Assembly (NCBI GenBank): GCA_037447655.1
Contig: JBBHKE010000827.1
Location: forward strand, 62,001-126,000
Source: Zygnema cylindricum
Lineage: Eukaryota > Streptophyta > Zygnematophyceae > Zygnematales > Zygnemataceae
DNA length: 64,000 nucleotides
Direction of reading: 5' to 3'
Every line of letters begins with the position of its first letter. Positions within the stretch are counted from its first letter, which is position 1. Of this stretch, positions 9,104 through 57,923 are shown one piece after another. Both the position numbers and the translations under genes were made by a program. The notes below the pieces were generated by a model that ran no database searches, was not told where the DNA came from, and worked only from the letters and a program-made list of their open reading frames with translations.

Positions 9104-9183
9104 AAAAGGTGTGACGGACCCAGGATTTGATCCTGGTACTTGTCGTCCGTCAAACTAGCCTTTCGCTTTAACCAACAAGTCTA
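9104..9183 (-). ncRNA. antisense tRNA-like Pol III-type module in LTR I
   Basis: On the minus strand: an A-box-like TAGACTTGTTGGTTAAAGC (9183-9165) close to the tRNA D-arm consensus; about 31 bases later a B-box-like GGATCAAATCC (9133-9123) in a T-arm-like hairpin of 5 bp with a 7-base loop. An acceptor-like 8 bp stem, TGACGGAC/GTCCGTCA (9152-9145 with 9119-9112), closes it, with the 3' strand contiguous with the T-arm as in tRNA. A TTTT terminator is at 9107-9104. This is the best preserved copy. Whether it is transcribed is unknown. Confidence 0.55.
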
Positions 9184-9721
9184 AATACAGTGCTAGAGTA
9201 CAATAGGTTTGACAGATATTTATATTTGTAGACGTAGACTAGTTCGTCTAACGGGAAAAGATACGTAATGCATAGATACAGTTTTGTATAGTACGGAGTA
9301 CGATTTAATGTATTTTATGAAACGGATACCGCGCAATTGTTTCGAACACGAAACAAATATCGTACGTATATTTTCAACGGCTACAATTGTATCCGGTTTG
9401 ATCGGACAGCCACGATACGCGCCGCGATCACGGATTATGTACTTTTGGCGTTTTTCAGTCATCACCACGTCATGTGACACGTGGCGCGACAATGTTGGAA
9501 TGCGGCGACTCCGGAGATTGCGGTAACAAATCCGGCTATGACACGTGTCGACATTTTGGCCATGTTGTACAATGGCCGTACAGAAAGTACACAGGCACCT
9601 GTACTTTTCTGTACGACACACTAATTTGATTGGTGCCGTACTTCAGTAGATAGAGTTTTAGAGAGGGAATAGGACTTAGAAAATTTTGGGTAAGTAGCTG
9701 CCTCTCCCAGAGAGCACCTTG

Positions 9722-9729
9722 TATAAATG
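9722..9729 (+). promoter_or_regulatory. TATA box of LTR I
   Basis: TATAAATG, at the position where other LTRs of the family have TATAAAAG (45167-45174, 50528-50535) or a decayed TACAAAAG. It is the presumed Pol II core promoter of the LTR. Confidence 0.55.
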
Positions 9730-10204
9730 GCAAACTTTGGCCAGCCATAACTATCAATTTACTTGACCATTTTCAGTGATTCTTTTTGCTGCGGACTCAG
9801 GGGAGTCCAGGCTACACAGGGGTGTAGTCGGTCAGAGTTTTTGTCTGCCAGGGTGGCTGAATTTATAAGGGAAAGTCAAAGTGGGTGAATGTGTCCAAAT
9901 CTTATATTCTAACTTTGCATTCTGTGGTGGAACTGAGCACACAAAAAGTGTTATTTCACAGGGGTGAATCTATATTGGGGTTCTGGCTGTGAAGGGGTTG
10001 GTCATTTGGGATTATATCAAGTTTGGAGTCGGCACTATCTAGATTAGCTTCTTTGGATCTGCCTACTCTGAGGGCCAATGGAGGTCTCAGAGTTTCACAC
10101 TCACTCCTCCGTACTTTGAAGACCGTACAGAGTAAAAAGGTCCCGGAAATCCTTGGTGATATAAAGGTATGCTTGAAAAGCACCTGAGCTTGACAACCGT
10201 GGGA

Positions 10205-10800
10205 TGTTCATCCGCGAGGCGGTCGCTTCATTTTTCTTTGTAACTGTCAACCCACCTCTAGGAGGTTGGTTTGCAGATATAGAAAAATAATCATGACACG
10301 TTGGAGGATTAAGCTACGTGTCATGATGGAAAACCAGCGAAAATTGACGAAATTTGCACATGACATGCGCTTTCAAAAATACAACCGAAAAATAAAAATG
10401 TAATTTCGTAACTCTCCGTCGTCACTCTACTTTCAGTACCTTTTGTTTGTCACACTATTTCAGTCACCAAACCTTCGTTATGTTTGAAAACAATAACCCT
10501 AAAAAATGAGCTGGCATAGAAGAGTTGCGTGTGCAAAAAGTATAAAGACCTTTTGTCGTATGATGATTTCGTACGCAGATACATGGTACGCAAGTGAAGA
10601 TTTGATGTAAAATTTGTTGTTGGAAAAAATCTTAAGGATATTCAATATCGGATCGTAGCTTATGTGGTGCCAGTCAATTTAGGACACGTGGTTTATAGAC
10701 TCTTCGTGATGGAACATCGACTCAATCGACCCGTTCTGTAAAGTTGGCCGTACGATTACAGAGACGTCTGATGGAACTTCACCCTAATTGATCCATAACG
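10205..10800 (+). repeat. dispersed repeat R1 (copy of R2)
   Basis: About 590 bp, homologous in the same orientation to 20525-21412. It has a hairpin start (CAACCCACC..GGAGGTTGG, 10249-10275), shared blocks CTACGTGTCATGATG and GGAACATCGACTCAATCGACCC, and an end near GGAACTTCACCCTAAT. No coding capacity. The exact ends and class are unclear; the terminal hairpin does not match the TIR families nearby. Confidence 0.6.
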
Positions 10801-10877
10801 ATGATTTGGGTACAACGGATCTGCCATCAGGATTTTCACAATAAAATAGGTAAAAGTACAAACTATGAGAAATCGTA

Positions 10878-11262: not shown

Positions 11263-11299
11263 TAGTTTCCATCGTGACACGGATTGATATCATCCACTA

Positions 11300-14689: not shown

Positions 14690-14691
14690 TA

Positions 14692-16993: not shown

Positions 16994-16998
16994 TCTTG

Positions 16999-17006
16999 CT
17001 CTCTTG

Positions 17007-25650: not shown

Positions 25651-26717
25651 TGAAACTCTAAGACCTCCATAAGTCCTCAGAGTGGACAGCTTCCAAGAAG
25701 CCTCTAGGATAACCCTGACCCCTTTGTGTTTCAACAAGAACAACTGCCACCCTGGCAGACAATAACTCTGACCACCTTCACCCCTGTAAAAGCAAGACTC
25801 CCCTGAGTCGATAGCAAAAAGAGTCTCTGAATTTGCTCGCCTGAGCAGTTAGTAATGGAGGGTCAAAGTTGACCTTTTGTACAGAAGCTCTCTTGGAGAG
25901 AGGATCCTATCTCCTAATTTTTCTAAGTCATATCTCTCTCACGGACTCTATATACTGATGTACGAAGCCAATTAGATTACACTTCCGTACACAAAAGTAC
26001 AGCTGTCGGTGTACTTTATGTACGGACAGTGTACGACATGGCCTTAATGTCGACACGTGGTATATTTGGATTCGCTCCCTTAATCCTCGGAGATGTCGCG
26101 ATCCAATGTCATCCCGCCACGTGTCATCCGATGTGGCGATGACCAAAAACCGCCGAAATCTTCTTCCGCGATCTTGGCGTTAATTCCGACCATCCGATTA
26201 AATTCACATTTAATCGTAGCCGTAATAAATACATGCGTGGTATTTGTTTCGTTAAAGAAATAAATGCGCGGTATTGGTTTCTTATCCGTAGCGTAATCCG
26301 TACTTTTACATTACTGGATCTATGTATCCCGGAAACAATTAGAGTTAAATGAATTATCCTACCTGGTAATGTTTAATTAAATATCAAACCATATAGTACC
26401 TAATACCATTTAAAGAGTTAACGGCTAAGGCTACCGGCTACCGGCTGCTTGCCGTCCGGCAGGTACCAAGATCTAATCCTGTGGCCGGCATATATCTTTT
26501 TAGTAAATAAACCCCTAACGGTAAATAAACTAATATATATTTCCCGTAAACCTCTGGATAGCCTATGTAGGCATGGCTCTAGCTTCCTCTCCAATTTCTC
26601 AGTGACTGCGACAAGTTTGAGAGTTGGAGAGAGAAGTTAGAGGTAGACTGCATCGGCTTCTTTCTATATTTCTATTTAGACCTAGAAAATAATTTAAATG
26701 GACCATTAATTTCTACA
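25651..26717 (-). mobile_element. solo Copia LTR H, family 1
   Basis: 1067 bp, inverted relative to LTR I, from TGAAACTCTAAGACC to TTAATTTCTACA, flanked by AGACG (25646-25650, 26718-26722). No internal region adjoins. It carries the tRNA-like module on the plus strand at about 26430-26497, with a damaged B box and a TTTTT run. Confidence 0.9.
26430..26497 (+). ncRNA. tRNA-like module in LTR H (decayed)
   Basis: AGAGTTAACGGCTAAGGC matches the A-box-like segment of the other LTRs. The B-box position reads AAGATCTAATCC, with changes at conserved bases. The closing stem is partly paired (TGCCG with CGGCA). TTTTT follows. Confidence 0.4.
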
Positions 26718-27771: not shown

Positions 27772-27969
27772 TGTAGAAATTAATGGTTTTTAAGTATTTT
27801 CTAGGTCTGAATAGAAATAAAGAAGCCGAGGCAGTCTACCTCTAACTTCTCTCTCCAACTCTCAAACTTGTCGCAGTCACTGAGAAATTGGAGAGGAAGC
27901 TAGAGCCATGGCTACCTAGGCTATCCTCAAGTTTACGGGAAATTTATATTAGTCTATGGATTAATTACT

Positions 27970-28057
27970 AAAAGGTATGTGCCGGCGACAGGATTTGATC
28001 CTGGTACCTGCCGGCCGTCAGAGTGTAGATAGCCGGTAGCCTTAGCCGTTAAGTCTA
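27970..28057 (-). ncRNA. tRNA-like module in the 5' LTR of B
   Basis: Minus strand: TAGACTTAACGGCTAAGGC (28057-28039), B-box-like GGATCAAATCC in a CAGGAT..ATCCTG hairpin, closing stem GCCGGC with GCCGGC (28015-28010, 27986-27981), then TTTT at 27973-27970. The stem sequence differs from that in LTR I while pairing is kept. Confidence 0.5.
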
Positions 28058-28536
28058 GAAGTAGTGTTACATAGTATATAGTACGATAATGATTTAAACA
28101 TGTACACATAGGATAAATCAATTAACTATAACTGTTAACGGGATACATCGATATGGTAGTGTAAAAGTACGAATTGCGGTACGGATAAGAAATCAATACC
28201 GCGCATTGATTTCGTAAGCGAAACAAATTCCGCGCATGTATTTATTACGGCTACGATCAAATGCGAGTTTAATCGGACGGCCAGAATTAGCGCAGAGATC
28301 GCGGAAGAAGAATTTGGCGGTTTGTGGGCATAGCCACATCGGATGACACGTGGCGATGTTACATTGGAGCGCGGCATCTCCGAGGATTAAAGGAGCGAAT
28401 CCGGAATTCTACGTGTGGACATTTAGGCCATGTCGTACAATGTCCGTACATAAAGTACACCGGCACCTGTACTTTTGTGTACGGAACACTAATCTGATTG
28501 GTTCCGTACATCAGTAGATAAAGTCTGTGAGAGAGA

Positions 28537-29585
28537 TGAAACTCTGAGACCTCCATAAGTCCTCAGAGTGGACAGCTTCCAAGAAGCCTCTAGGATAATC
28601 CTGACCCCTTTGTGTTTAAGCAAAAATAACTGCCACCCTGGCAGACAAAAACTCTGACCAACTTCACCCCTGTGAAGACAAGACTCCCCTGAGTCGATAG
28701 CAAAAAGAATCTCTGAATTTGCTCCCCTGAGCAGTAAGTTATGGAGGGTCAAAGTTGACCTTTTGTACAGAAGCTCTCTGGGAGAGAGGGTCCTATCTTC
28801 TAATTTTTCTAAGTCCTATCTCTCTCACAAACTCTATCTACTGATGTACGGAACCAATCAGAATTGAGTTCCGTACGTAAAAGTACAGCTGCCGGTGTAC
28901 TTTATGTACGGACATTGTACGACATGGCCAAAATGTCGACACATGTCAAATCCGGATTCGGTGCCATAATCTCCGGAGATTCCACAATCCAACAGAATTT
29001 CGCCACGTGTCATCCGATGTGGCGATGGCCACAAACCGCCGAAATTCTCCTCCGCGATCTCGGCGCTAATCTCCGCCGTCCGATTAAATTCGGCTTTAAT
29101 CGTAGCCGTAATAAATACATGCGCGGTATTTGTTTCATTTACGAAACAAATGCGCGGTACTGATTTGTGTCCGTACCGTAAGTCGTACATTATTTATTAC
29201 TGGATCTATGTATCCCGTAATTCATTTCAGTTAAATGATTTATCGCACGTATACATATTTAAATAAATATCAAACTATATGCTATGTAACACTACTGCTA
29301 GACTTAACGGCTAAGGCTACCGGCTAATTCCTATCTGCCGGCCGGTAGGTACATGGATCAAATCCTGCCGCCGGCACATACCTTTTAAATAAATAATTAA
29401 ATCCTAACATAAAATTCCCGTAAACCTCAGGATAGCCAAGGTAGCCATGGCTCTAGCTTCCTCTCCAATTTCTCAGTGACTGCGACAAGTTTGAGAGTTG
29501 GAGAGAGAAGTTAGAGATAGACTGCCACGACTTCTATATTTCTTTTCAGACCTAGAAAATACTAATAAAACCATTAGTTTCTACA
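28537..29585 (-). repeat. 3' LTR of element A
   Basis: 1049 bp, from TGTAGAAACTAATGG (minus strand, at 29585) to GGTCTCAGAGTTTCA. Matches 33938-34986 base for base as far as I can read. It contains the tRNA-like module at 29299-29386. Confidence 0.93.
29299..29386 (+). ncRNA. tRNA-like module in the 3' LTR of A
   Basis: Plus strand (antisense to A): TAGACTTAACGGCTAAGGC at 29299, GGATCAAATCC at 29355-29365, closing stem TGCCGGC (29336-29342) with GCCGGCA (29370-29376), TTTT at 29383-29386. Confidence 0.5.
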
Positions 29586-29598
29586 CTCCCCTTATTTT

Positions 29599-31553
29599 CT
29601 AGTCAATCTTTAATTTCAGACCACACTTTTCCCTGCAGAAAATTAGCTTAGGGGAAGGCACAGGTTTGGTCATCATATCTGCTACCATCTCACTATCTGG
29701 TCGGTACTCTAAACTGATTATTTTGTTTTCTACTTTCTCTCTAACAAAGCTGAGTCTAATGTCCATGTGTTTAGCTTTAAAATGATGTTTAGGATTGGCA
29801 GAAATAGCGATTGCAGCCTGATTATCACAAAAAAAATTCTGCACACCACTCTTAAGGTGACCAAGCTCACCAAGCAAAGACTTGACCCACATCAATTTTT
29901 TTACAACAGAGCAAGAGGCCATATACTCAGCCTCCATGGTGGACTGAGCAATAAATTTTTGTTGTTTGCTACTCCAACAGCAAGCCCCATCACCCACATA
30001 TAATACATATCCAGAAGTGCATCTCCTCATAGGAGCATCACCATAACTAGCATCGCTCCAAGTAGTGATGTCAGTAATCTCCCCACCCAAATGCACCCAT
30101 AGATCCCTAGTTCCTATCAAGTATCTAAAAACTCTCTTAGGTGCCTCCCAATCCTTCTTAGTGGGAGCATTTAGACTTCTACTCAGCACTCCTACAGCTG
30201 CAGCTAAATCCGGCCGGGTATAATTCATAAAATAGATTACACTTCCCACTACTTGCCTGTAAGGAATAGTCTGCATGAACTTCTGTTCTTCTGGAGATAA
30301 TTTCTCTTCTAAGACTATGACTCCTTCTTCCTCACTCCCCTCACTTCCCTTCTTCAACTCCATTGGAGTTGTACAACTATTAGCTTTATCCATTTGAAAT
30401 TTTTCAAGCATGTTCTATATTGCTTCCTTTTGAGTCAATCTTATAATTTTTCTTTTTCGGTCTCTCTCCCCTTGAATTCCCAAAATATATTTTGCTCCAC
30501 CCATATCCTTCATTTCAAATCTCCTCTTAAGATCAGTTTTCTGTTTATTATTTTTTTCCATTGATTTACTTAAAACAAGCAAATCATCAACATAAATTGC
30601 AATGAATATGATACCTTCCTCATCTTCAAAAACATAGATTGAGTGATCTGAGCTGATCCGGATATATCCCAGACCGGTAAGAAACTCATCAAGCTTCTTC
30701 TTCCATTGTCGAGGCGCTGTTTCAAACCATAAAGAGATTTAATCAGCCGGCATACCTTACTCTCCTCTCCTTCTTCCACAAACCCTTCGGGTTGTCGCAT
30801 GAAGATCTCCTCTTCCAATTCTCCATGCAAAAAGGTTGTTTTGATGTCCATCTGGTGCACTTCCATGTCTTCCGCTGCTGCTAGGCTGAGAAGTATGCGG
30901 ACGGAGGGAAATCTGACCACCGGGGCAAAGGTTTCCTCGTAGTCAATTCCCTCCTTTTGTGTAAATCCCTTTGCCACTAGTCGGGCCTTGTAGCGCTCGA
31001 TTGTGTAATCTGGGTTCAATTTTAATTTGAAAACCCACTTACAACCGATTGGTTTTCGGTTAGGTGGACAATCCACCTGCTCCCAAGCATCGGCTGCCAT
31101 AATTGAGGCCATCTCCTCATTGATGGCTATCTTCCACCGATTTTTTTCTGGACAAGTCATCGCCTCTCCATAAGTTTGAGGTTCATCTTGATGAGATAGT
31201 TTAGTTACCTTGTTATTAATCTGTTTTTCTTGCAGTCTTTTGCTACTTCTCCTTCCCCCCTTCAAATCAGAGGCCGAAATAGATGGTTCTCGTGGATTCT
31301 TTCCAACAAACTCGGCTTCTCCCCTATCCTTTGATTCTGAATCAATTTCCACCACGTCTTCCGCTTCGGGTAGAGTTGTCACTGGAGTTTCCACAGCCAA
31401 GTCCTTTTCAGTCTGATTTGTACCTGCAAGAATGTCATCTTCTCTAAAACCTGGATAGTTAGGAAGCCCAATGTCATCGGAATTTTCTGACTCAAATCTG
31501 ATTTTTAATGACTTTGCATATTTGAAGGGATCCACAGACTTTCTTTCATCCAT
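29599..31553 (-). pseudogene. pol: Copia RT and RNase H, element A (frameshifted)
   Basis: From the linker (DERKSVDPFKYAKSLKIRFE) into RT: ARLVAKGFTQKEGIDYEETF, then IKTTFLHGELEEEIFMRQPEG, LIKSLYGLKQ, with a frame loss near 30710. The catalytic IYVDDLLVLSKS is present at about 30610-30575 but in a shifted frame. The frame returns as LEKFQMDKANSCTTPMEL and RNase H (TTWSDASYGDAPMRRC, QSTMEAEYMA, FCDNQAAIAI, HFKAKHMDIRLSFVREK), ending at a stop just before the polypurine tract. Split by at least two frameshifts. Confidence 0.88.
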
Positions 31554-31610
31554 AACTACTAGATGTTTTACAAAGATTATATCTTCCGTTTTTAGATCAT
31601 AAACTCTATA

Positions 31611-33031
31611 TCATTTAACATCCTCATCATATCCTAATAAGTATCCCGATTTTCGTTTAGGATCTAGCTTACAATTAGAATGATCTGTATCTAGACTAAA
31701 TACTTGACTGTCAAAAACCTTTAAGTGAGATATGTCTGGTTTCCGGCTTGTCCATCTCTCATAAGGTGTTTGATCTTTTATAGCTGAAGTAAGAACTCTA
31801 TTTTTGAGGTAATTAGCATAGTTCATTGCTTCTGCCCAAAACCTTTTTCCTATCTTCTTATCTGACAACATACTTCTAGCACTATCACTTAGTGTTCTAT
31901 TTAACCTTTCAGCTACCCCATTCTGTTCCGGGTTTTTGTGGAACTGTCTTTTGGTGTTGGACCCCATCTTCCCTCAGAAAATCCTCAAACTGGTTAGAAG
32001 TATACTCTCCACCATTGTCACTCCTTATTCTCTTGATTGGAGTTTCATGGAGTTTTTGGCTCCATGCTTTATATTGTCTAAAACAATCCTGAGCGTCGGA
32101 CTTGTTTTTCAAAAAATACACTCGGGAATACCGAGACCAATCATCAGTGATAGTCATCATAAATCTCTTCCCCCCCCGGTGAGGGTACTCTAGCCGGTCC
32201 CCAAATATCTGTGTGTACTTGATCTAGAATTTATTCTCCTTTATAGGTGGCTGTTTTAGAAAAGGGTAATCAGAGTGTTTTACCTTGAGCACACCCACTC
32301 TTATCACTTATATTATCACTCTCACTAAACTTAATCCCTTCCACCACTCCCATCTTTTTCATCTCTCTTAACTTGTCTAGATTCACATGCCCAAGCCTCT
32401 TATGCCACATCATAATATCATGAACACCAACATAATAAAGTTTTTTCGTTTCATTACTTAAGATCAGCCTAAACATCCCATGGTTACCTTTCTCAGCAAT
32501 GAAATAGACATCCTCCTCAAAACTAGCAGTAAAGACTCCTTCCCTAGTGCTAGTGCAAAAACCCTTATCATCTAATACGGATGTAGAGATAAGGTTTTTG
32601 TTCAGCTCCGGAATAAACAATACATCGAAGAATGTTAATATGGATGTCTTTCCTTCTACTAACACTTTCAGATCTATCGATCCTACAAGAGTAGTGGTGA
32701 CTATCCTCCCATCCCCGTACTCTATCTCTACGGTAGGAATCTTTCTTATCTTAGTGAACAGGTGCCTATCCTTACACATGTGCATGGAGGCACCTGAATC
32801 TATAATCCAGCCTGCTTCACCTTTCAATCCAGTGTAAGCACATTTCTGCCTTCGTGGAATTTCAACCTCATTTTTTTCCTCCAACTCCTCATCCAAAAAG
32901 AGTTGATCGTCTTCTTCCTCTGATTCTGCCTTAAGTACCTGTGTGACAAGGGCCTTTTTCTTTCCTCTCGGGGTACCACCGGTCTGCCCCTCTTTTAACC
33001 AAAGCTCGGTTAGCTTACTGCACTCAGCCAT
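31611..33031 (-). pseudogene. pol: Copia protease and integrase, element A (frameshifted)
   Basis: An open stretch (33031-32270) has the end of the zinc knuckle (MAECSKLTEL), an acidic linker, protease WIIDSGASMHMC and the GAG-pre-integrase motif MWHKRLGHVNLDKL. The integrase core follows in two other frames: MMTITDDWSRYSRVYF, RSDNGGEYTSNQFEDF and KNPEQNGVAERLNRT (catalytic Asp, Asp and Glu region). One frameshift lies at 32170-32177, where A has eight Cs and B has seven. Confidence 0.88.
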
Positions 33032-33957
33032 ATAGTGCCCGGTTTCTTACAAAAATGACATAAACCTTTGGGAGCCCTTGGTTCGAACTCATCAGCCTGT
33101 TTTTTTCTGCTCCCTACCCCCATAGTTTTCGACTGGTTTCCGGGAATCTTTGTTCCTCTAATAGGTCGTTGTTGCCAAGGCTTGGCCACTCTTTCCTCCC
33201 CTTCGGATCTCAATCGTATTCTCTCGAACGAGAATCATCCCTACCACTGAGTTCCATATCCACCTTGAGTCCGACAAGTCCTATACACGGTTGACTATGT
33301 TCTCGAACACATTAGGTAACTTCATAAGTAAACAATTAACCTTTTCATAATCACTAAAAACTTTTCCCTAACTCTCTAACTCCATGAAGAGTGTAGCAAG
33401 TTCATTGCAAAAATCCAACATATTTCCCCCTTTGTATACATACTCTTTAACTTTCTGATCAGCCAAATGTTGTTGCTGAATCGTACCACTTCGGTACATC
33501 TCTATGAGAGCCATCCAAAGATCGGATGCCCTTTCTACCTGCAAATGGGGACATGCAAGGCCTTGAGTGAGATGGCGTAGGATGAAGTGCTTTGCCGCCA
33601 TATTGTTGAAGTCCCAGGTTTCAGTATCATTGTACTCGTTCCTCGGAATAGGTGACATGAATGCTGAACCAGTTGCTATTGGTGTGGTCGCTTCCTTCTC
33701 CTTTCCTTTGTCCACCACCTCTCCTTCATTTGTTTCCTCCGTTGAAGGTGAATCCTCTTTCCTGGTGAATCTGCTTTCTTTAAACCCTGGAGGAATTCCA
33801 AGACTTGATGGACGCCCGATCGTCCACTCACTATCCCCCAAAACCTTTTTTCGCATAGAGCTCCTATCATCATACTTTCCCAGTATATGAAGCCAGTTCC
33901 ATTAAATATTGGCACCCTAGAGGGTGGGCCCATAACCTGAAACTCTGAGACCTCCAT
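33010..33957 (-). pseudogene. gag: Copia gag, element A (frameshifted)
   Basis: Starts MEVSEFQVMGPPSRVPIF in the last bases of the LTR and runs through the primer site. It is followed by NGTGFIYWESMMIGALCEK, typical of Copia gag. A one-base loss near 33818 (three Gs where B has four) shifts the frame. The body continues with GKEKEATTPIATGSAFM, NNMAAKHFILRHLTQGL and TIQQQHLADQKVKEYVYKG to a stop near 33368. The knuckle CHFCKKPG..MAEC is split by another shift near 33030. Confidence 0.85.
33923..33937 (-). other. half-tRNA primer-binding site of element A
   Basis: Minus strand GGTTATGGGCCCACC, directly after the LTR end. It is complementary over all 15 bases to the anticodon arm (GGTGGGCCCATAACC) of plant initiator tRNA-Met as I know it. 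Its ATG pairs with the CAU anticodon. Confidence 0.8.
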
Positions 33958-34986
33958 AAGTCCTCAGAGTGGACAGCTTCCAAGAAGCCTCTAGGATAAT
34001 CCTGACCCCTTTGTGTTTAAGCAAAAATAACTGCCACCCTGGCAGACAAAAACTCTGACCAACTTCACCCCTGTGAAGACAAGACTCCCCTGAGTCGATA
34101 GCAAAAAGAATCTCTGAATTTGCTCCCCTGAGCAGTAAGTTATGGAGGGTCAAAGTTGACCTTTTGTACAGAAGCTCTCTGGGAGAGAGGGTCCTATCTT
34201 CTAATTTTTCTAAGTCCTATCTCTCTCACAAACTCTATCTACTGATGTACGGAACCAATCAGAATTGAGTTCCGTACGTAAAAGTACAGCTGCCGGTGTA
34301 CTTTATGTACGGACATTGTACGACATGGCCAAAATGTCGACACATGTCAAATCCGGATTCGGTGCCATAATCTCCGGAGATTCCACAATCCAACAGAATT
34401 TCGCCACGTGTCATCCGATGTGGCGATGGCCACAAACCGCCGAAATTCTCCTCCGCGATCTCGGCGCTAATCTCCGCCGTCCGATTAAATTCGGCTTTAA
34501 TCGTAGCCGTAATAAATACATGCGCGGTATTTGTTTCATTTACGAAACAAATGCGCGGTACTGATTTGTGTCCGTACCGTAAGTCGTACATTATTTATTA
34601 CTGGATCTATGTATCCCGTAATTCATTTCAGTTAAATGATTTATCGCACGTATACATATTTAAATAAATATCAAACTATATGCTATGTAACACTACTGCT
34701 AGACTTAACGGCTAAGGCTACCGGCTAATTCCTATCTGCCGGCCGGTAGGTACATGGATCAAATCCTGCCGCCGGCACATACCTTTTAAATAAATAATTA
34801 AATCCTAACATAAAATTCCCGTAAACCTCAGGATAGCCAAGGTAGCCATGGCTCTAGCTTCCTCTCCAATTTCTCAGTGACTGCGACAAGTTTGAGAGTT
34901 GGAGAGAGAAGTTAGAGATAGACTGCCACGACTTCTATATTTCTTTTCAGACCTAGAAAATACTAATAAAACCATTAGTTTCTACA
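33938..34986 (-). repeat. 5' LTR of element A
   Basis: 1049 bp, the partner of 28537-29585. It contains the tRNA-like module at 34700-34787 on the plus strand and the presumed promoter. Confidence 0.93.
34700..34787 (+). ncRNA. tRNA-like module in the 5' LTR of A
   Basis: Same sequence as 29299-29386: A-box-like segment at 34700, B-box-like GGATCAAATCC, closing stem TGCCGGC/GCCGGCA, TTTT at the end. Confidence 0.5.
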
Positions 34987-35254
34987 AGAGATAGGACTTA
35001 GAAAAAATTAGAAGATAGGACCATCTCTCCCAGAGAGCTTCTGTACAAAAGGTCAACTTTGACCCTCTATAACTTACTGCTTAGGGGAGCAAATTCAGAG
35101 ATTCTTTTTGCTATCGACTCAGGGGAGTCTTGCCTTCATAGAGGTGAAGGTGGTCAGAGTTTTTGTCTGCCAGGGTGGCAGTTATTTTTGCTTAAACACA
35201 AAGGGGTCAGGATTATCCTAGAGGCTTCTTGGAAGCTGTCCACTCTGAGGACTT

Positions 35255-36400
35255 ATGGAGGTCTCAGAGTTTCAGGTTATGGGCCCACCCTCTAGGGTAC
35301 CAATCTTTAATGGAACTGGCTTCATATACTGGGAAAGTATGATGATAGGAGCTCTATGCGAAAAAAAGGTTTTGGGGGATAGTGAGTGGACGATTGGGGC
35401 GTCCATCAAGTCTTGGAATTCCTCCAGGGTTTAAAGGAAGCAGATTCACCAGGAAAGAGGATTCACCTTCAACGGAGGAAACAAAAGAAGGAGAGGTGGT
35501 GTACAAAGGAAAGGAGAAGGAGGCGACCACACCAATAGCAACTGGTTCAGCATTTATGTCACCTATTCTGAGGAACGAGGAGAATGATACTGAAACCTGG
35601 GACTTCAACAATATGGCGGCAAATCACTTCATCCTACGCCATCTCACTCAAAGACTTGCATGTTCTCATTTGCAGGTAGAAAATGCATCCGATCTTTGGA
35701 TGGCTCTCATAGAGATGTACCAAAGTGGTACGATTCAGCAACAACAGTTGGCTGATCAGAAAGTTAAGTAGTATGTATACAAAGGGGGAAATATGTTGGA
35801 TTTTTGCAATGAGCTTGCTACACTCTTCATGGAGCTACACAGTGCGGGAAAAGATTTTAGTGAAAAAGAAAAGGTTAACTGTTTACTGATGAAGTTACCT
35901 AATGAGTTCGAGACATAGTCAACCGTGTGCAAGACTTGCCGGACTCAAGGTGGATATGGAACTCAGTGGTAAGGATGATTCTCGTTTGAGAGAATATAAT
36001 TGAGATCCGAAGGGGAGGAAAGAGTGGCCAAGCCTTGGCAATAGCGACTGATTGGAGGAACAAGGATTCCTGAAAACCGGTCGAAAACTATTGGGGTAGG
36101 GAGCAGAAAAAACAGGCCGACGCGTTCGAACCTAGGGCTCCCAAAGGTTTATGTCATTTTTGTAAGAAACCGGGGCACTATATGGCAGAGTGCACTAAGC
36201 TAACCGAGCTTCGGTTAAAGGAGGGGCAGATCGGTGGTACCCTGAGAGGAAAGAAAAAGGCCCTTGTCACAGAGGTACTTGAGGCGGAATCCGAGGACGA
36301 GGACGATGAGCTCCTTTTGATTGAGGAGTTGGAGGCGAAAAATGAGGTCGAAATTCCACGAATGCAGAAATGTGCTTACGGTGGATTGAAAGGTGAAGCA
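35255..36400 (+). pseudogene. gag: Copia gag, element B (stops)
   Basis: ATG at 35255 lies in the last 20 bp of the LTR and the frame (MEVSEFQVMGPPSRVP) crosses the primer site. The body matches A: NNMAANHFILRHLTQRL, LQVENASDLW, TIQQQQLADQKVK, then a TAG near 35770. Further stops include a TGA at 35987-35989, where A has CGA. The knuckle CHFCKKPGHYMAEC (36153-36194) is intact, followed by an acidic linker (AESEDEDDELL). Confidence 0.85.
35275..35289 (+). other. half-tRNA primer-binding site of element B
   Basis: GGTTATGGGCCCACC immediately after the LTR end TTCA. Same match to the initiator tRNA-Met anticodon arm as in A. Confidence 0.8.
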
Positions 36401-39625: not shown

Positions 39626-40672
39626 TGTAGAAATTAATGGTTTTTAAGTATTTTCTAGGTCTGAATAGAAATAATGAAGCCGAGGCAGTCTACCTCTAAC
39701 TTCTCTCTCCAACTCTCAAACTTGTCGCAGTCATTGACAAATTGGAGAGGAAGCTAGAGCCATGGCTACCTAGGCTATCCTGAGGTTTACGGGAAATTTA
39801 TATTAGTCAAGGGATTAATTACTGAAAGGTATGTGCCGGCGACAGGATTTGATCTTGGTACCTGCCGGCAGTCACAAAGTAGATAGCCGGTAGCCTTAGC
39901 CGTTAAGTCTAGAAGTAGTCTTACATAGTATATAGTACGATAATGATTTAAACATGTACACGTAGGATAAATCATTTAACTATAACTTTCAACGGGATAC
40001 ATAGATATGATAGTGTAAAAGTACGAATTGCGGTACGGATAAGAAATCAATACCGCGCATTGATTTCGTAAGCGAAACAAATACGACGCATGTATTTATT
40101 ACGGCTACGATCAAATGCGAGTTTAATCGGACGGCCGGATTAGCGCCGAGATCGTGGAAGGAGAATTTGGCGGTTTGTGGGCATCGCCACATCGGATGAC
40201 ACGTGGCGATGTAACATTGGAGCGCGGCATCTCTGAGGATTAAAAGAGCGAATCCGGATATTCCACGTGTGGACATTTAGGCCATGTCGTACAATGTCCG
40301 TACATAAAGTACACCGGAAGCTGTACTTTTGTGTACGGAATAGTAATCTGATTGGTTCCATACATCAGTAGATAGAGTCTGTGAGAGAGATAGGACTTAG
40401 AAAAATTAGAAGATAGGACCCTCTCTCCCAGAGAGCTTCTGTACAAAAGGTCAACTTTGACCCTCTATAACTTACTGCTCAGGGGAGCAAATTCAGATAT
40501 TCTTTTTGCTATCGACTCAGGGGAGTCTTGCCTTCACAGGGGTGAAGGTGGTCAGAGTTTTTGTCTGCCAAGGTGGCAGTTATTTTTGCTTAAACACAAA
40601 GGGGTCAGGATTATCCTAGAGGCTTCTTGGAAGCTGTCCACTTTGAGGACTTATGGAGGTCTCAGAGTTTCA
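39626..40672 (+). repeat. 3' LTR of element B
   Basis: 1047 bp from TGTAGAAATTAATGG to CTCAGAGTTTCA after polypurine tract AAAGGGAG. The tRNA-like module is at 39835-39911 (minus), where the terminator is reduced to TTT and the T-arm has one mismatch (GATCTTGG). Confidence 0.93.
39835..39911 (-). ncRNA. tRNA-like module in the 3' LTR of B (terminator decayed)
   Basis: Minus strand TAGACTTAACGGCTAAGGC, then AGATCAAATCC and the GCCGGC closing stem. Only three Ts follow. Confidence 0.42.
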
Positions 40673-43375: not shown

Positions 43376-43560
43376 ATCTTTGTTGAAATAAAATGTATTT
43401 TCTAGATTATTTAATTGATTTAATTAGAAGCAGCCTGCTTCTAGCTTCTCTCTCTAAGCCTCGATACTTGTTGTAGTCACTGAAGGTTGGAGAGGAAGCT
43501 AGAGTCATGGATGCCCATGCTCCTTATAGAGTCAGAACGAAGATCCTTGGTAATCTCACC

Positions 43561-43639
43561 AAAAGGATTAACGGACCCAAGATTTGATCCTGGTACCAAC
43601 CGTCTGTCAAAGTAGCCATTAGTCTTACCCTGTAGTCTA
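43561..43639 (-). ncRNA. tRNA-like module in the 5' LTR of F
   Basis: Minus strand TAGACTACAGGGTAAGAC (43639-43622), T-arm with one mismatch, closing stem ACGGAC with GTCTGT (one G-T pair), TTTT at 43564-43561. Confidence 0.45.
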
Positions 43640-43881
43640 AGACCAGTGTTGAAGTATATAGGGAACGATAACTACTTAAACATGACAAAATAGAGAAGTT
43701 CGGTTTTCTGACAGACGGACCACAATCACACAGACACAGTTAGATAGAGTTACACCGAAAAGTACTGATTATATATTAAACGGCTATAAATTAAGGCCGA
43801 CATAAATCTAGCGGCGGAGAAAGAAGCCGGCATCGCGAAATGGCCGATTTTGCGGTTTGCGGTCATAGCCACAACGGGTGA

Positions 43882-44919
43882 TGTTGAAATTTATAGATTT
43901 CTAGAGTATTTTCTAGGTTTAAATATGTTTTTATAAAAGGAAAAGAAAAAGGACGGACAGCCTGCCTCCACCTCCGCTCACTAGCCCCCATACTTGTTGT
44001 AGTCACTGAAGGTTAGAGAGGGAGGTTGATCCATGGCTGCCTTAGTTCAACAGACAACTATTTTTAGTAGGTTACTAAAAATATACTTGACGGACCGGAG
44101 ATTTGATCCCGGTACCTACGGTTCGTCAAGTTGGCCGGTAGCGGTCAACTTTATCCTAATAGACTAGGACCAATGTTAAGTGCTATGGTATGTGTTAGAT
44201 ATATATATACAGTTCGAGTGGATAAAATTCATTTAACTAGAACTGTATACGGCGTACATAGATTCAGTTTTAGAAAGTACATCGTACGATGCTAAATCAA
44301 AACGGATACCACGCATTTTGTTTCGACAGCGAAACAAATGCCGCGCAAGTATTTATTACGGCTAAGATTGCGTTTCGCATAAAATCCAACGGCGCACATC
44401 ATCGCCGAAATCCCGGAGTGGTCACTTTGGCGTTTTGTGACGTGGCATGACCTGGAGCCACGTGGAGAGATGACATTCGGTCATAGAAATTCCGAGGAAC
44501 GTACGGACGAGTGAAAAGCGGACACGCGTCCGCTTAATAGCCTTGTCGTACATAGGCCGTACAAAAGGTACATCGGCAGTAGTACTTTTGTGTACGGTAC
44601 AGTAATCTGATTGGTCCGTACTTCAGTAGATAGGAGTTATTAGAGAGAATCAGGACTTAGAAAATTTTGGAAGGTAGTACCTCTCCCTTTGAGAGTTTGT
44701 ACAAATTGGCATTTTTACTGCCTCATAACTTATCGGCTGGTTGGCCGTTTTCAGTGATTCTTTTTGCTACAGACTCAAGGGAGTCGGGCTGCACATGGAA
44801 GCACTCAAATTGTCAGTTTGCCTTCTTGGCCAGAAGTGGTCGTGGCTTAAAGTGGGTTAGTTAAATACTATCTAGAGGCTTCCTGTATTCTGTAGTCCAA
44901 TGGAGGACACAGAATTGCA
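43882..44919 (+). mobile_element. solo Copia LTR G inside the 5' LTR of F
   Basis: 1038 bp from TGTTGAAATTTATAG to CACAGAATTGCA, flanked by GGTGA (43877-43881, 44920-44924). The LTR of F reads on across the insertion (ACAACGGGTGA then CACGTGGCAGC), as confirmed by the 3' LTR of F near 50275-50295. Confidence 0.93.
44077..44166 (-). ncRNA. tRNA-like module in solo LTR G
   Basis: Minus strand TAGTCTATTAGGATAAAG (44166-44149), B-box-like GGGATCAAATC, closing stem of 10 pairs CTTGACGAAC/GTCCGTCAAG with one G-T, TTTTT at 44081-44077. The T-arm has shifted to a CCGG/CCGG stem. Confidence 0.48.
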
Positions 44920-45166
44920 GGTGACACGTGGCAGCATGACATTGGATGATGGCATTTCTGGGACATACAATGGCGAACCCAAAAATGGCAGGCGTCGTCT
45001 TTTTGACCATGTCGTACAAAGGCCGTACAAAAAGTACTCCGGACCAAGTACCTTTTTGTACTGTACACTCAATTAATTGGCTCAGTACATCAGGAGATGA
45101 GAGTTTAGAGAGGGGTTTAGGGTTTAGAAAATTAGAGGTAGCCGCCTCTCTCTCAGAAAGCTCCAG

Positions 45167-45174
45167 TATAAAAG
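45167..45174 (+). promoter_or_regulatory. TATA box of the 5' LTR of F
   Basis: TATAAAAG about 220 bp before the LTR end, at the same place as 50528-50535 in the 3' LTR. Presumed Pol II core promoter. Confidence 0.6.
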
Positions 45175-45377
45175 GTCATATTTGACCATTGGTAATTTAC
45201 TGCTCAGGGGAGCAAATTCAAGGATTTTTTTTGCGGCAGACTCAGGGGAGTCAGCTCTTCTAAGGAGTGCAATTTGGTGAGTCTGTTTATTGTCTAGGTG
45301 TCATCTATAGTAGTGCAAAGACTAAGGGGTTGAGGTCATCCTAGAGGCTTCTGGCAAGCTGCCTGCTCTAAGTACCA

Positions 45378-46778
45378 ATGGAGGTCTCAGAGTTGCAGGT
45401 TATAGGCCCACCCTCTAGGGTGCCCATATTCAATGGGACTGGGTTCATCTACCGGGAAAGTATGATGATAGGAGCCCTATGTGAGAAAAGATTTTGGGGA
45501 ATAGTGAGTGGGCGAGTGAAGCGCCCATCCGGTCCTACTATTCCTCCAGGGTTTGCAAGAAGCAGATTTGGTAGGAAACCAGATCCACTGCCATTAGATG
45601 ACTCAGAGGATGGAGAAAGCATCGTGATGGAAAAAGGGAAAGAAAAAGAGAAAACCACACCTATAGCAAGCGGATCTGCTTTCATGTCTCCAATTTCGAG
45701 GAATGAGGAAAATGACATCGATACCTGGGACTACAACAACATGGTGGCCAAGCATTTTATCCTCCGTCATCTCACACAAGGACTCACAGGTCCTCATTTG
45801 CAGGTGGAAAGGGCATCTGATCTGTGGGATGCGCTTATAGAGATGTATTGTAGCGGTACTATTCAAGAACAGAAGCTAGCAGATCAAAGGATCAAAGGAT
45901 ACTTTCACAAAGGAGAGAAGATGCTCGATTTCTGCAATGAGTTGGCTATACTCTTCATGAAGTTAGAGTGTGCTGGAAAAGTGGAAACCGAGAAGGCAAA
46001 GGTTCACTACTTACTCATGAAACTACCCGATGAGTATGAGAACATTGTGAACCGCGTAAAGGATCTGCCGGACTCCAGGTGGATATGGAATTCGGTAGTT
46101 GGTATGATCCTCGTCTGAGTGAACACAATCGAAATCCGGATGGGAGTAAAGTGTGGACAAGCCTTGGCGGCCGGAGAAAGTTGGAGAAACAAAGATTCAC
46201 GGAAACCCCTTGGAAGTTATGGAGGAGAAGATGAGAAAAATCACTCCGATGAGTCCGGAACAAGGGGACCAAAGAGGGTTTGTCATTTCTGCAAGAAACT
46301 CGTGCATTACATGGCAGAATGTACCAAACTGACCGAACTTCGGATAAAGGAGGGGCATACCGGGGGTCAACCACGAGGGAAGAAAAAGGCACTTATCACG
46401 CAGGTACTCGAGGAGGAATCCGATGAGGAGGACGACGAACTTCTTTTGGATGAGGAGTTGGAGGCAAAGACAGAAGTCGAAATTCGAGGAAAGCAAAAAT
46501 GTGCTTTCGGTGGACTGAAAGGTGAAGGAGGCTGGATTGTGGATTCAGGTGCAACCATGCACATGTGCAAGGATAAGCATATGTTTACTAAGCTGAGAAA
46601 GATCCCTACAGTAGAGATTGAATATGGGGATGGGAGAGTAGTGACCACCACTTATGTAGGATTGATAGATCTGAAAGTCATAGTGGAGGGAAAAACCTCA
46701 ATAGTTACGTTCTCCGATGTATTGTTTATTCCGGAGTTAAACAAAAACCTTATCTCTACATCTGTATTAGATGATTAA
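45378..46778 (+). pseudogene. gag-pol: Copia gag and protease, element F (two stops)
   Basis: Starts MEVSELQVIGPPSRVPIF in the LTR end. Gag runs 246 codons (NNMVAKHFILRHLTQGL, LQVERASDLW, EKMLDFCNELAILF) to a TGA at 46116-46118, the same codon as the TGA in B. It continues with the zinc knuckle CHFCKKLVHYMAEC, an acidic linker (EEESDEEDDELLLDEE) and protease WIVDSGATMHMCKDK, then FSDVLFIPELNKNLI, to a TAA at 46778. Confidence 0.88.
45398..45412 (+). other. half-tRNA primer-binding site of element F (ATG lost)
   Basis: GGTTATAGGCCCACC, one mismatch to the initiator tRNA-Met anticodon arm. The in-frame ATG is ATA here, so Gag can only start at the upstream LTR ATG. Confidence 0.7.
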
Positions 46779-49962: not shown

Positions 49963-50041
49963 AAAAGGATTGACGGACCCAGTATTTGATCCTGGTACCA
50001 ACCGTCCGTCAAAGTAGCCGTTAGTCTTACCTTGTAGTCTA
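49963..50041 (-). ncRNA. tRNA-like module in the 3' LTR of F
   Basis: Minus strand TAGACTACAAGGTAAGAC (50041-50024), GGATCAAATAC, perfect 8 bp closing stem TGACGGAC/GTCCGTCA (50011-50004 with 49978-49971), TTTT at 49966-49963. Confidence 0.5.
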
Positions 50042-54758: not shown

Positions 54759-55483
54759 TGATACACTCTTAGAAGCTATCAAGAATCATACGATACAGCT
54801 GTTTACAATTGCTCACCAAATGTTATACAAGCATCCAAACTTCACAAAGCTCCATCAAAATATAGAGTAGCATAAACACTGACAATTCCCAAAGTTTCAG
54901 TACAAGTGACCAGACAACACTCAAGATATAATACTCAGAAGTTTCCCAAAAACTGTTTGTAGTTTTACTACTTGGAAGTCTGGATACATAATGTGTTGTG
55001 AGTCCTAAGTCTTATACTTGTGTTATACTGGCAATACAGTGTACTTGAGAGGTTCGTCAAACCACCAAGCCAACGCTAATCTGTCAAGCTACCATTGAGC
55101 TACCACTAAACTACCACTGAGCTACCCACTAAGATGACTAGAATCGTATCTATTGCAGTTGTTTTATACTGTACATAATCACATTAAAATATCAAACGCT
55201 ACGTTGTTTGTACGGACCATATCAAACGTGATCGCAGTTGCGTTGCCTTAACTTTGTCGCTGCCGCTTTGTTCTGTTTGTTCGCAGCTGCGTTGCTGCAT
55301 CGTAGTTGCGTTGCTGCATCGCTCCTGCGTTGTCTCCCCTCAATGTGTGACATGTATATGTGGATATAAGAGCCAATCCAAGATACCTGTAATGTGCTTT
55401 AAGTGACGACGCGTGTCCTTGTAGATTTGTCTTATTGTTCGTCATACTAATTTACAAAGACTTAAAGCTTTCCAAAATCAACA
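54701..55483 (-). repeat. 5' LTR of element D
   Basis: 783 bp partner of 42295-43047. It has four 11 bp units at 55087-55127 against three in the other LTR. On the minus strand these read TAGCTCAGTGGTAG repeatedly, followed about 35 bases later by GGTTTGACGAACC, resembling A and B boxes. The two LTRs differ by many substitutions, so D is older than A. Confidence 0.87.
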
Positions 55484-55488
55484 GGATT

Positions 55489-56851
55489 AACCTAGAAAGA
55501 GAGAATTGACTACGAGGAGACATTTGCCCCGGTCGACAAGTTTCCCTCCGTCCGCATACTTCTCAGTCTGGCAGCAGCAAAAGATGTGGAAGTACATCAA
55601 ATGGACAACAAGACGGCCTTCCTACATGGAGAGTTCGAAGAGAAGATCTTTATGCGAAAGCCCGAAAAATTTGTGAAGCTAGGGGAGGAGAGCAACGTTT
55701 GGCGATTGATCAACTCCTTACATGGGCTGAAACAGGCGCCCTGGCAATGGAATAAGAAGCTCGATGAGTTTCATATAGGTTTAGGATACCTTCCGATCAG
55801 CTCACATCACTCAATTTATTTGTTTGAAGATGAGGAAGGAACTATATTTATTGCAATTTATGTTGATGATTTGCTTGTTTTAAGTAGATTTATGGATAAA
55901 ATTTATAAATTGAAAACATATCTAAAAGGTAGATTTGAGATAAAGGATATGAGCGAAGCAAGGTATATTTTAGGAATTCAGGTAGAGACAAACAAAGATA
56001 GAAAGATAATTAGATTAACTCAAAAAGAGGCCATTAGAAACATGTCAAAAACATTCCAAATGGACAAGGCTAATAGTTGTACCACTCCAATGGAACTAAA
56101 GAAGCGAAATGAGGGGAATGTGGAAGAGGGAGTTCTAATATTGGATGATGAATTAGGTCCCGAAGAGAAAAGATTTATGTACACAATTCCTTATAGAAAA
56201 GTAGTTGGCAGCCTACTATATTTTATAAATTGTACCCTGCCGGATATAGCCGCAAGAGTAGGGGTACTAAGCAGGAGTTCAAATGCTCCCACTAAGAAAG
56301 ATTGGGAGGCAGCTAAGAGAGTCCTTAGATATCTCATAGGGACTAGAGATCTATGGCTGCATTTGAGTGGGAACAATAATGACATCATCACTTAGAGTGA
56401 TGCAAGCTATGGGGCTGCTCCTATGAGGAGATGCATGTCTAGATATGTAACGTATGTGGGTGACGGGGCTTGCTGCTGGAGCAACAAGCAACAAAAGTTC
56501 ATTGCTCATTCCACTATGGAGGCTGAGTACATGGCCTCTTGTTCTGCTGTAAAAGAATTAATGTGGGTCAAGTCGTTGCTTGGTGAGCTTCGTCATCTTT
56601 AAAGTGGTGTCGAAAAAGTGTTTTGTGATAATCAGGCAGCCATTGCCATTTTTGCTAATCCTAAACACCCTTTAAATCCAAACATATGGACATTAGACTT
56701 GGCTTAGTTAGAGAGAAGGTAGAAGACAAGGTAATCAGTTTAGAGTATAGACTAGACAGTGAAATGGTAGCAGATATACTGACCAAACATGTACCTTCCC
56801 CTAAACTAATTTTCAACGAGTGAGGTGTGGTCTTAAATTGAAGAGTGACTA
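55489..56851 (+). pseudogene. pol: Copia RT and RNase H, element C
   Basis: After D: KERIDYEETFAPV, MDNKTAFLHGEFEEKIFM, LINSLHGLKQAPWQWNKKL, IYVDDLLVLSRFMDK (YVDD intact), ARYILGIQVET, TIPYRKVVGSLLYFINCT. A TAG at 56393-56395 replaces the TGG of TTWSDASYGD, as in F. RNase H continues as MRRCMSRYVTYVGDG, HSTMEAEYMASCSAVKEL, with a stop near 56600 and a short deletion near 56660, to the polypurine tract AAAGGGAG. Confidence 0.86.
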
Positions 56852-56865
56852 AAAAATAAAGGGAG

Positions 56866-57923
56866 TGTAGAAATTAATGGTTCTTGTAGTATTTTATAGG
56901 TCTAAACATGTAAAATAAAATGTAGAATAGAAGCTGAGGTAGTCTGCCTCTAACTCCTCTCTTTAGCTCCCACACTTGTCGCAGTCATTGAAGGTAAGAG
57001 AGGGAGATAGAGGCATGGTTGCCTTTGGTGTCCAAAGAGAGAGAGACAAGAAGTAGATTTTGGTAGGTTTACCAAAATGTACTTGACGAACCCAAAAATT
57101 GATCACGGTACTTACCGTCCGTCAAGTCAGCAGTAGCCGTTAACTTTATCCTATAGAATACGATCTGCCCTGAGTTATATAGGGTTCGATAAGTATTTAA
57201 AGATGCACTTAACATAAATTCATTTAACGACCCGAATAGACTTGTAACATAGACACAGTTAAAATATACGCAGGACTTACTGTACTTAGTATAACGAATA
57301 CCGTGTATATATTTCGATGGCGAAACAAATACCGCTCATTGATTTTCGACGGCTAGAATCAAAAGTTGGTTTGATCGAACGACCATGATAGGTGTTGAGA
57401 TCGCGGAATAGGCGCTTTGGCGGTTTTCGGTCACCGCCACGTCAAGCGTCACGTGGCAAGACATCATTAGTTGCGGCATCTCCGGAGGATATGGGAACTA
57501 ATCCAAATATGGCAAACGTCAACATTTTAGCTATGCCGTACGATGCTCGTACTGAAAGTACTTTGACACCTGTACCTTTCTGTACAACACAATCTTCTGA
57601 TTGGTGCTGTACTCTAGTAGTAGAGGGTTAAAAGAAGGATATAAGACTTAGAAAATTTGATAGGTAGCCACCTCTCTCCAAGAGTGCTTTTGTACAAAAG
57701 GTCAACTTTGACCCTTCATAACTTACTGCTCAGGGGAGCAAATTCAAAGATTCATATTGCTATCAACTTAGGGAAGTCTTGTCTTCACAGGGGTGAAAGT
57801 GGTCACAGTTTTTGTGTTTCAGACGGGCAGTTATTTTTGTCCAAACACAAAGGGGTCAGGCTTATCCTAGCGGCTTCGTGTGAGCTGCCCATTTTGAGGA
57901 CCTATAAAGGTCTCAAAATTGCA
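56866..57923 (+). repeat. 3' LTR of element C
   Basis: 1058 bp from TGTAGAAATTAATGG to TCTCAAAATTGCA. It is the most diverged family-1 LTR of the nest. The tRNA-like module at 57074-57160 (minus) keeps 9 of 10 closing pairs and TTTT, but its T-arm is broken. Confidence 0.88.
57074..57160 (-). ncRNA. tRNA-like module in the 3' LTR of C (decayed)
   Basis: Minus strand TTCTATAGGATAAAGTTA in the A-box position, GTGATCAATTTTT in the B-box position, closing stem CTTGACGGAC/GTTCGTCAAG with one mismatch, TTTT at 57077-57074. Confidence 0.35.

What the first reader, a model, noticed from the sequence alone, without database searches (positions are those of the whole stretch)
9104..57160. Antisense tRNA-like, Pol III-type module conserved in every sufficiently complete family-1 Copia LTR
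Seen directly: ten LTR copies (modules at 9104-9183, 26430-26497, 27970-28057, 29299-29386, 34700-34787, 39835-39911, 43561-43639, 44077-44166, 49963-50041, 57074-57160) carry, always antisense to the element, the same ordered parts: TAGACTT..GG-TAA-GC (A-box/D-arm-like), about 30-40 bases, GGATCAAATCC (B-box/T-arm-like; consensus GGTTCRANNCC), an acceptor-like stem contiguous with the T-arm, and TTTT or TTTTT within about 10 bases (reduced to TTT in 39835-39911). The stem changes sequence but keeps pairing: TGACGGAC/GTCCGTCA in I and F, GCCGGC/GCCGGC in B, TGCCGGC/GCCGGCA in A, CTTGACGGAC/GTTCGTCAAG in G. Known: A box, B box and T-run define type 2 Pol III genes. Inference: the LTRs may make a small antisense RNA from a captured tRNA/SINE, which could affect reverse transcription, silencing or primer supply.
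Basis: partly seen in the sequence, partly recalled or inferred. Interest (0 to 1): 0.88.

Follow-up and report, generated by a model that had tools for sequence, protein, structure and literature searches.

The report
Antisense Pol III promoter in LTRs
A very numerous family of Copia jumping genes appears to carry, backwards inside its terminal repeats, a tRNA-type promoter for RNA polymerase III next to a conserved hairpin; the promoter's B box looks kept by selection, but no transcript has been seen yet.

Summary
The ten modules exist where stated. From the window alone the Pol III reading is weak: the modules do not stand out from other A box + B box + TTTT sites, no tRNA model passes, and the 'acceptor' arm lies between the two boxes. 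Copies from the host genome (353 Mb) change this. I took LTR copies by that loop (29) or by the HP1 model (3), so blind to the module. 29 of 32 have an antisense B box within one mismatch of GGWTCRANNCC, and 29 of 32 a T-run 12-18 bases on. One sister family is close to textbook. The B box changes more slowly than the surrounding LTR (3.3 against 5.2 steps, p 0.012); the outer hairpin arms do not, and in the sister family they no longer pair. Best reading: an antisense, tRNA-derived type 2 Pol III promoter in U3 of an autonomous Copia lineage. Transcription and function are inferred. HP1 itself shows covariation and a mild antisense bias.

The parts
9104..9183 (-). Pol III-like module, LTR I (B box 9123-9133)
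   Evidence: RF00005 18.8 bits below gathering 29
26413..26497 (+). module, LTR e (B-like 26469-26479, degenerate; A-like starts about 26413)
27970..28057 (-). module, LTR c (B box 27991-28001)
29299..29386 (+). module, LTR a (B box 29355-29365)
34700..34787 (+). module, LTR b, identical to LTR a (B box 34756-34766)
39827..39911 (-). module, LTR d (B box 39845-39855; T-run broken to TTT)
43561..43639 (-). module, LTR f (B box 43580-43590)
44077..44166 (-). module, LTR g (B box 44099-44109)
49963..50041 (-). module, LTR h (B box 49982-49992)
57074..57160 (-). module, LTR k (B-like about 57095-57105, decayed)
8977..9057 (-). HP1 hairpin, LTR I
   Evidence: R1 91.0 bits
26569..26650 (+). HP1 hairpin, LTR e
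   Evidence: 98.2 bits
27832..27913 (-). HP1 hairpin, LTR c
   Evidence: 100.4 bits
29443..29524 (+). HP1 hairpin, LTR a
   Evidence: 98.5 bits
34844..34925 (+). HP1 hairpin, LTR b
   Evidence: 98.5 bits
39686..39767 (-). HP1 hairpin, LTR d
   Evidence: 99.2 bits
43431..43512 (-). HP1 hairpin, LTR f
   Evidence: 90.8 bits
43958..44038 (-). HP1 hairpin, LTR g
   Evidence: 94.6 bits
49833..49914 (-). HP1 hairpin, LTR h
   Evidence: 92.6 bits
56940..57020 (-). HP1 hairpin, LTR k
   Evidence: 87.2 bits
28537..29585 (-). LTR a of an element whose other LTR is 33938-34986 (identical, so recently inserted)
   Evidence: 100% over 1049 bases, ends
39626..40672 (+). LTR d, 3' LTR of an element whose other LTR is about 27772-28536 + 34987-35274, split by a nested element
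35275..35289 (+). PBS, complementary to the anticodon arm of initiator tRNA-Met (tRNA sequence recalled)

Best explanation
The module is a type 2 (tRNA-type) Pol III promoter, most likely of tRNA or SINE origin, fixed in antisense orientation in the U3 part of the LTRs of a large autonomous Copia lineage. TFIIIC would bind the A and B boxes, Pol III would start about 10-20 bases upstream of the A box, close to a TATA-like block that could also serve the element's own Pol II start, and would stop at the T-run, giving an antisense RNA of roughly 90-110 bases. The B box is better kept than any outer fold of the product, so the likeliest role is the act of recruiting TFIIIC/Pol III beside the element's own promoter (keeping it open, or tuning sense transcription), with the short antisense RNA as product or by-product. 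Shown: motif, place, orientation, near-canonical forms in a sister family, slow evolution of the B box. Inferred: binding, transcription, start, length, role.
For: Copies were chosen by the HP1 loop (29) or the HP1 model (3), not by the module. Of 32: B box within 1 mismatch of GGWTCRANNCC 29, exact 16; T-run of 4 or more starting 12-18 bases on 29; A box with at most 2 mismatches (loose, 46 start places) 25; all three 21. In the 200 bases beside HP1, A+B with at most 3 mismatches plus TTTT: 22 of 32 new and 4 of 9 window copies antisense, 0 of 41 sense. Sister family L019, L020, L022, L023, L036: GGTTAGAGC in 3 of 5, GGTTCGAGTCC in 3 of 5 (the others 1 off), T-run in 5 of 5. Over 10 clusters, no copy excluded for lack of a B box, the B box is at the 99th percentile of between-cluster identity, the T-run and the A-box 3' part at the 96th. 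Parsimony steps against 5.2 in the background: whole B box 3.3 (p 0.012); six of its seven fixed positions 2.0 (p 0.0018); outer hairpin arms 5.3 and 5.7. T-arm cells pair in 158 of 205. TATA-like sequence 43-71 bases from the module's arm, on the promoter side of the A box, in 9 of 9 window LTRs by a loose definition, exact TATAWA in 6 of 9.
Against: No transcript data. Window modules do not stand out among A+B+T sites. Most copies have GGATC, not GGTTC: only 19 of 32 new copies are within 1 mismatch of GGTTCRANNCC; A at this place is found in initiator tRNA-Met genes (recalled). The set of six fixed positions left out the last C, which I saw to vary, so its p value is partly post hoc. A-box and T-run slow-down is marginal on the tree (12-base A box p 0.11, 19-base region 0.05, T-run 0.08); the 12-base A box is only at the 82nd percentile and the TATA-like block at the 63rd. 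Even the sister family's A box is 2 mismatches from TRGYNNARNNGG. In one search six new copies (L024, L030, L034, L038b, L039, L040) are matched by 10% or more of their shuffles. ARAGORN: none at the module in 31 loci. Rfam tRNA: one sub-threshold hit in nine window copies. The 30 loci are the first in contig order, not a random draw.
Confidence: 0.6

Rival explanations
1. Ordinary U3 cis-regulatory dyad: a palindromic CGG...CCG motif upstream of the TATA box that binds Pol II activators, like the repeated motifs of Sirevirus LTRs. The tRNA likeness is accidental.
For: CGG in the 5' arm in 8 of 9 window copies (CCG in the matching 3' stretch in 5 of 9) and a TATA-like block downstream. The stem keeps pairing in most clusters (239 of 323 cells) and, in 23 distinct matches picked by the structure model, the covariation score exceeds all 500 shuffles. 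Sirevirus repeated motifs are palindromes, nearly all with a CGG-CCG core, a short way upstream of TATA (PMC2829016, passages); cis-regulatory palindromes are described for Copia and other elements (PMC10760457, passages).
Against: Arm sequence evolves at background rate while the central B box is slow; in the sister family the stem is at chance (14 of 40) while near-canonical tRNA boxes sit at the same place.
Confidence: 0.2
2. Dead or decaying SINE/tRNA remnant inserted antisense into an ancestral LTR and carried along by descent, without present function.
For: Worn B boxes in e, k, L038b, L039 and broken T-runs in d, L024, L039, L040; no intact tRNA at the module.
Against: B box 3.3 against 5.2 steps (p 0.012), six fixed positions 2.0 (p 0.0018).
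Confidence: 0.12
3. Sequence-specific site for another factor (for example the GATC-containing core), which happens to overlap a B-box-like string.
For: GATC core kept in all nine window copies; the neighbouring CTACCGGCTA block is also slow (p 0.04).
Against: The sister family has GGTTCGAG or GGTTTGAG, without GATC, and L012, L018, L002 have GGTTCAA.
Confidence: 0.08

Closest known systems
Helenus / TRIMp3 (Kojima 2024, PMC10886601; outline, abstract, Results part 1 of 2, Discussion and passages read)
   Same: LTR retrotransposons with a tRNA-like A box/B box inside the LTR; most fungal ones have a PBS to a tRNA anticodon loop, tRNA-iMet the dominant type; the fungal ones probably depend on Copia.
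   Different: Helenus are short non-autonomous elements (311-1263 bp) whose tRNA-like part is thought to make their own template RNA. Here the module is antisense, in LTRs of about 1 kb of elements with gag-pol, mostly with GGATC rather than GGTTC. A text search of the paper for 'antisense' and 'opposite' finds none.
Cassandra (as described in PMC10886601)
   Same: Pol III promoter inside an LTR, with transcripts.
   Different: 5S rRNA-derived, non-autonomous.
Simian foamy virus U3 Pol III miRNA genes (PMC7104284, passages)
   Same: A/B-box Pol III units within U3 of an LTR of an autonomous retroelement.
   Different: Animal retrovirus; the boxes lie in miRNA precursors. Here the conserved hairpin HP1 is a separate unit beyond the T-run.
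BLV Pol III pri-miRNAs (PMC4267658, passages)
   Same: A box, T-run and B box needed for short RNA.
   Different: There the terminator lies between A and B; here it follows B as in tRNA genes.
Sirevirus repeated motifs and Copia LTR hairpins (PMC2829016, PMC10760457, passages)
   Same: CGG-CCG palindromes in the LTR upstream of TATA; hairpins concentrated in Copia LTRs.
   Different: No A/B boxes in the passages read; HP1 is one long hairpin found in 37 distinct copies here.

Membership tests
Type 2 Pol III gene | B box GGTTCRANNCC | tested here: inconclusive
   within 1 mismatch in 19 of 32 new and 3 of 9 window copies; with W at position 3, 29 of 32 and 7 of 9
Type 2 Pol III gene | A box TRGYNNARNNGG upstream of B | tested here: inconclusive
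   at most 2 mismatches in 25 of 32 new and 8 of 9 window copies, a loose criterion over 46 start places; slow-down only marginal
Type 2 Pol III gene | T-run shortly after B | tested here: met
   29 of 32 and 8 of 9
Type 2 Pol III gene | transcribed by Pol III | not testable with these tools
   no expression data
tRNA | cloverleaf | tested here: not met
   RF00005 18.8 bits in one of nine window copies
Helenus (TRIMp3) | short non-autonomous element | tested here: not met
   elements with gag, integrase and RT frames
Helenus (TRIMp3) | GGTTC and TRGCY in the boxes (true of most Helenus) | tested here: not met
   window copies have GGATC, AGATC or TGATC and mostly TAGAC; the sister family has GGTTC in 4 of 5
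Ty1-Copia (Pseudoviridae), half-tRNA primed | integrase before RT; PBS to an internal iMet stretch | tested here: met
   rve before RVT_2 in one frame; PBS read, tRNA sequence recalled; hemiviruses use a short tRNA segment (PMC8515867, passages)
Sirevirus | multiple PPTs and many CGG-CCG repeated motifs | not tested
   only the terminal PPT was looked at

The most novel reading that the evidence does not exclude
A two-part antisense small-RNA gene built into a huge number of LTRs: a tRNA-derived Pol III promoter followed, beyond a leaky TTTT, by the conserved HP1 hairpin, so that read-through RNAs deliver a hairpin (as in virus tRNA-miRNA units, recalled) that regulates the element or its host.
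Probability: 0.15. Interest if true: 0.85.

Novelty: new variant of a known kind. Interest (0 to 1): 0.6.

Why it matters
Pol III promoters in LTRs are described for short non-autonomous elements and for foamy viruses. An antisense one kept across several LTR subfamilies of an autonomous Copia lineage, in a genome with 15,054 HP1-loop matches, would mean that Pol III machinery is recruited at a large part of that genome's repeats. It makes testable whether elements use Pol III beside their own Pol II promoter, and warns tRNA and small-RNA annotation of such genomes.

Tried and rejected
tRNA cloverleaf reading: rejected. ARAGORN with lowered thresholds separates poorly: at 95% 1 of 41 copies against 0 of 820 shuffles, at 85% 2 of 41 against 9 of 820, at 75% 25 of 41 against 193 of 820, at 65% 33 of 41 against 489 of 820. 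My first conclusion from the window alone (chance resemblance) was given up after the genome copies. A draft statement that T-arm pairing is lost was given up. Antisense strand of HP1: in nine copies not decided (7 G-U against 6 A-C changes); with 37 copies 45 against 25, p 0.022 (the alignment was fitted to the antisense model, so it leans that way). In one search two of five measures do not clearly exceed the shuffles (doubly changed pairs 22 of 500, further pair types 407 of 500). Neutral simulations start from a perfect helix and ignore quasi-palindrome repair by template switching, which can imitate compensation. Self-targeting of new insertions to the module: two LTRs nested in LTRs at positions 501 and 766, others in internal parts (L038 flank by eye); not supported. 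Host not identified: best named Copia hits are oomycete at about 41% identity, below unnamed metagenome hits; Gypsy hits plant and metagenome. No match of one LTR in plasmids or of an HP1 pattern in viral contigs. Paper searches: no title or abstract start that I saw in these listings reports an antisense Pol III promoter in an autonomous Copia LTR; most full texts were not read. Also looked at by passages: PMC3601003, PMC5311732.

Rows dropped: L027 (masked) throughout; four copies without a B box at the place were left out and put back. L009 is the same place as L018 and was counted once; L039:1-60 is the same copy as the second hit of L038. L034 (below the E cut) was placed by the loop pattern. 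L014/L015 and L025/L026 are near-identical pairs. The 32 new copies are 29 of the 30 loci, two further HP1 hits inside L031 and L038, and L002.


Full report
What was checked. The ten modules are at the stated coordinates and antisense to the elements. LTRs run TGTWGAAA...TTKCA, with a purine tract before and a PBS (GGTTATGGGCCCACC) after; that PBS complements the anticodon arm of initiator tRNA-Met as I recall it, so these look like half-tRNA-primed Copia elements. Nine copies are distinct; LTR a and b are identical over 1049 bases.

What the window alone says. A box + B box + TTTT sites with at most three mismatches number 18 in the window, five of them modules, against a mean of 7.5 (5-12) in six Markov controls; the modules do not stand out from the other 13. 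ARAGORN and Rfam find no tRNA; close scans give RF00005 at 18.8 bits in copy I only, of nine copies examined. The stem's 5' arm lies between the boxes. Pairing of the T-arm is not better than neutral simulation (678 of 2000 runs reach it), stem plus T-arm 217 of 2000; doubly changed stem cells are unusual (9 of 2000), and the covariation score is reached by 1 of 500 shuffles. On this evidence I would have called the tRNA likeness chance.

A second feature, HP1. The strongest structure in the LTR is elsewhere: a hairpin of about 25 pairs at LTR positions 65-145. In nine copies 94% of cells pair, with 14 doubly changed cells (0 of 500 shuffles); neutral simulation reaches the pairing in 1 of 2000 runs and the doubly changed cells in 2. 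In 37 distinct copies 90.6% pair with 74 doubly changed cells (0 of 500). It folds better on the antisense strand in 33 of 37 (mean -32.2 against -26.1 kcal/mol), with 45 G-U against 25 A-C changes (p 0.022; alignment fitted to the antisense model). Its conserved loop has 15,054 exact pattern hits in the genome against 33 for the backwards control.

Copies from the genome. G000 is an assembly of 352.8 Mb in 2,689 contigs. The 30 loci were chosen by the HP1 loop; with three HP1 hits found by model and without masked L027, 32 new copies could be examined. In the 200 bases beside HP1, 22 of 32 new and 4 of 9 window copies have A+B with at most three mismatches and TTTT on the antisense strand, 0 of 41 on the sense strand; six new copies are matched by 10% or more of their shuffles. 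At the aligned place, B box within one mismatch of GGWTCRANNCC: 29 of 32 new, 7 of 9 window; T-run: 29 of 32 and 8 of 9; A box with at most two mismatches: 25 of 32 and 8 of 9; all three: 21 of 32 and 6 of 9.

The sister family. L019, L020, L022, L023 and L036 carry HP1 (65-75 bits) and, in 4 of 5, the LTR start TGTTGAAA. In antisense they read a D-arm-like block (GGTTAGAGC in L022, L023, L036) and GGTTCGAGTCC (L019, L023, L036; L020 and L022 one off), then four or five T. Their A box is still two mismatches from TRGYNNARNNGG. L012, L018 and L002 have GGTTCAA where most copies have GGATCAA. Initiator tRNA-Met genes also have A at that place (recalled).

Constraint. On a tree built without the A, B and T columns, the B box takes 3.3 steps per column against 5.2 in the background (p 0.012). 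Six of its seven fixed positions take 2.0 (p 0.0018); the last C, which varies, was set aside after I had seen it, with W, R and the two free positions, and these five take 4.8. The 19-base A region takes 4.2 (p 0.05), its 12-base box 4.2 (p 0.11), the T-run 3.0 (p 0.08), the two outer hairpin arms 5.3 and 5.7.

Fold. In 41 copies T-arm cells pair in 158 of 205 and stem cells in 239 of 323, against 36% for random column pairs; in the sister family T-arm 20 of 25, stem 14 of 40. In 23 distinct matches picked by the structure model both helices pair at about 80% and the covariation score exceeds all 500 shuffles (the picking leans that way). So the outer stem belongs to the window's relatives, while the T-arm and the boxes are shared with the sister family. 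That fits a tRNA-derived promoter whose cloverleaf is gone, as in SINE heads (recalled).

Mechanism. Shown: motifs, orientation, spacing, constraint on B. Inferred: TFIIIC binding, Pol III start upstream of the A box near a TATA-like block, stop at the T-run. That block is met loosely in 9 of 9 window copies and as exact TATAWA in 6 of 9, but a TTTAAAT part of it is not more conserved than the rest between clusters (63rd percentile). HP1 lies beyond the T-run, so it is not in the predicted transcript unless termination leaks. Since the box is kept better than the outer fold, recruitment of Pol III factors beside the Pol II promoter is my first choice for the role.

Comparison. Kojima's Helenus (PMC10886601) is the nearest in idea but is short and non-autonomous, and most have GGTTC and TRGCY. 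Simian foamy viruses have A/B-box Pol III miRNA genes in U3 (PMC7104284). Sirevirus repeated motifs offer the ordinary rival (PMC2829016). In the listings of my ten paper searches I saw no antisense Pol III promoter in autonomous Copia LTRs; this rests on titles, abstract starts and passages.

Limits. One genome, unnamed host, first loci in contig order, related copies (10 clusters at 75% identity), no expression data.

Noticed in passing
window 45365-45450 and 35250-35330: The gag frame seems to start at an ATG inside the 3' end of the LTR and to read through the PBS; LTR k has lost that ATG. Ty1 gag also starts in its LTR (recalled).
   Followed up: partly
window 28537-34986 in 27772-35274; 43882-44919 in 43381-45397: Nested insertions of the same LTR family into its own LTRs, at LTR positions 766 and 501.
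   Followed up: partly
L042 (G000:C10:73400-74300): HP1 loop motifs four times in about 400 bases, including a 63-base tandem copy.
   Followed up: no
L019, L020, L022, L023, L042: Right after the T-run of the sister family a short palindromic hairpin (GAGTGAC...GTCACTC) sits between module and HP1.
   Followed up: no
L038:1912-1983 (-): ARAGORN tRNA-Gln (CTG) near an LTR; its T-arm and 3' end resemble the module weakly.
   Followed up: partly
first 60 bases of the LTRs: A block TATTTTCTAGGTC near the LTR start recurs in most of the 25 copies printed.
   Followed up: no
window LTRs, about LTR positions 386-480 and 646-735: Further inverted repeats in the LTR by consensus folding.
   Followed up: no
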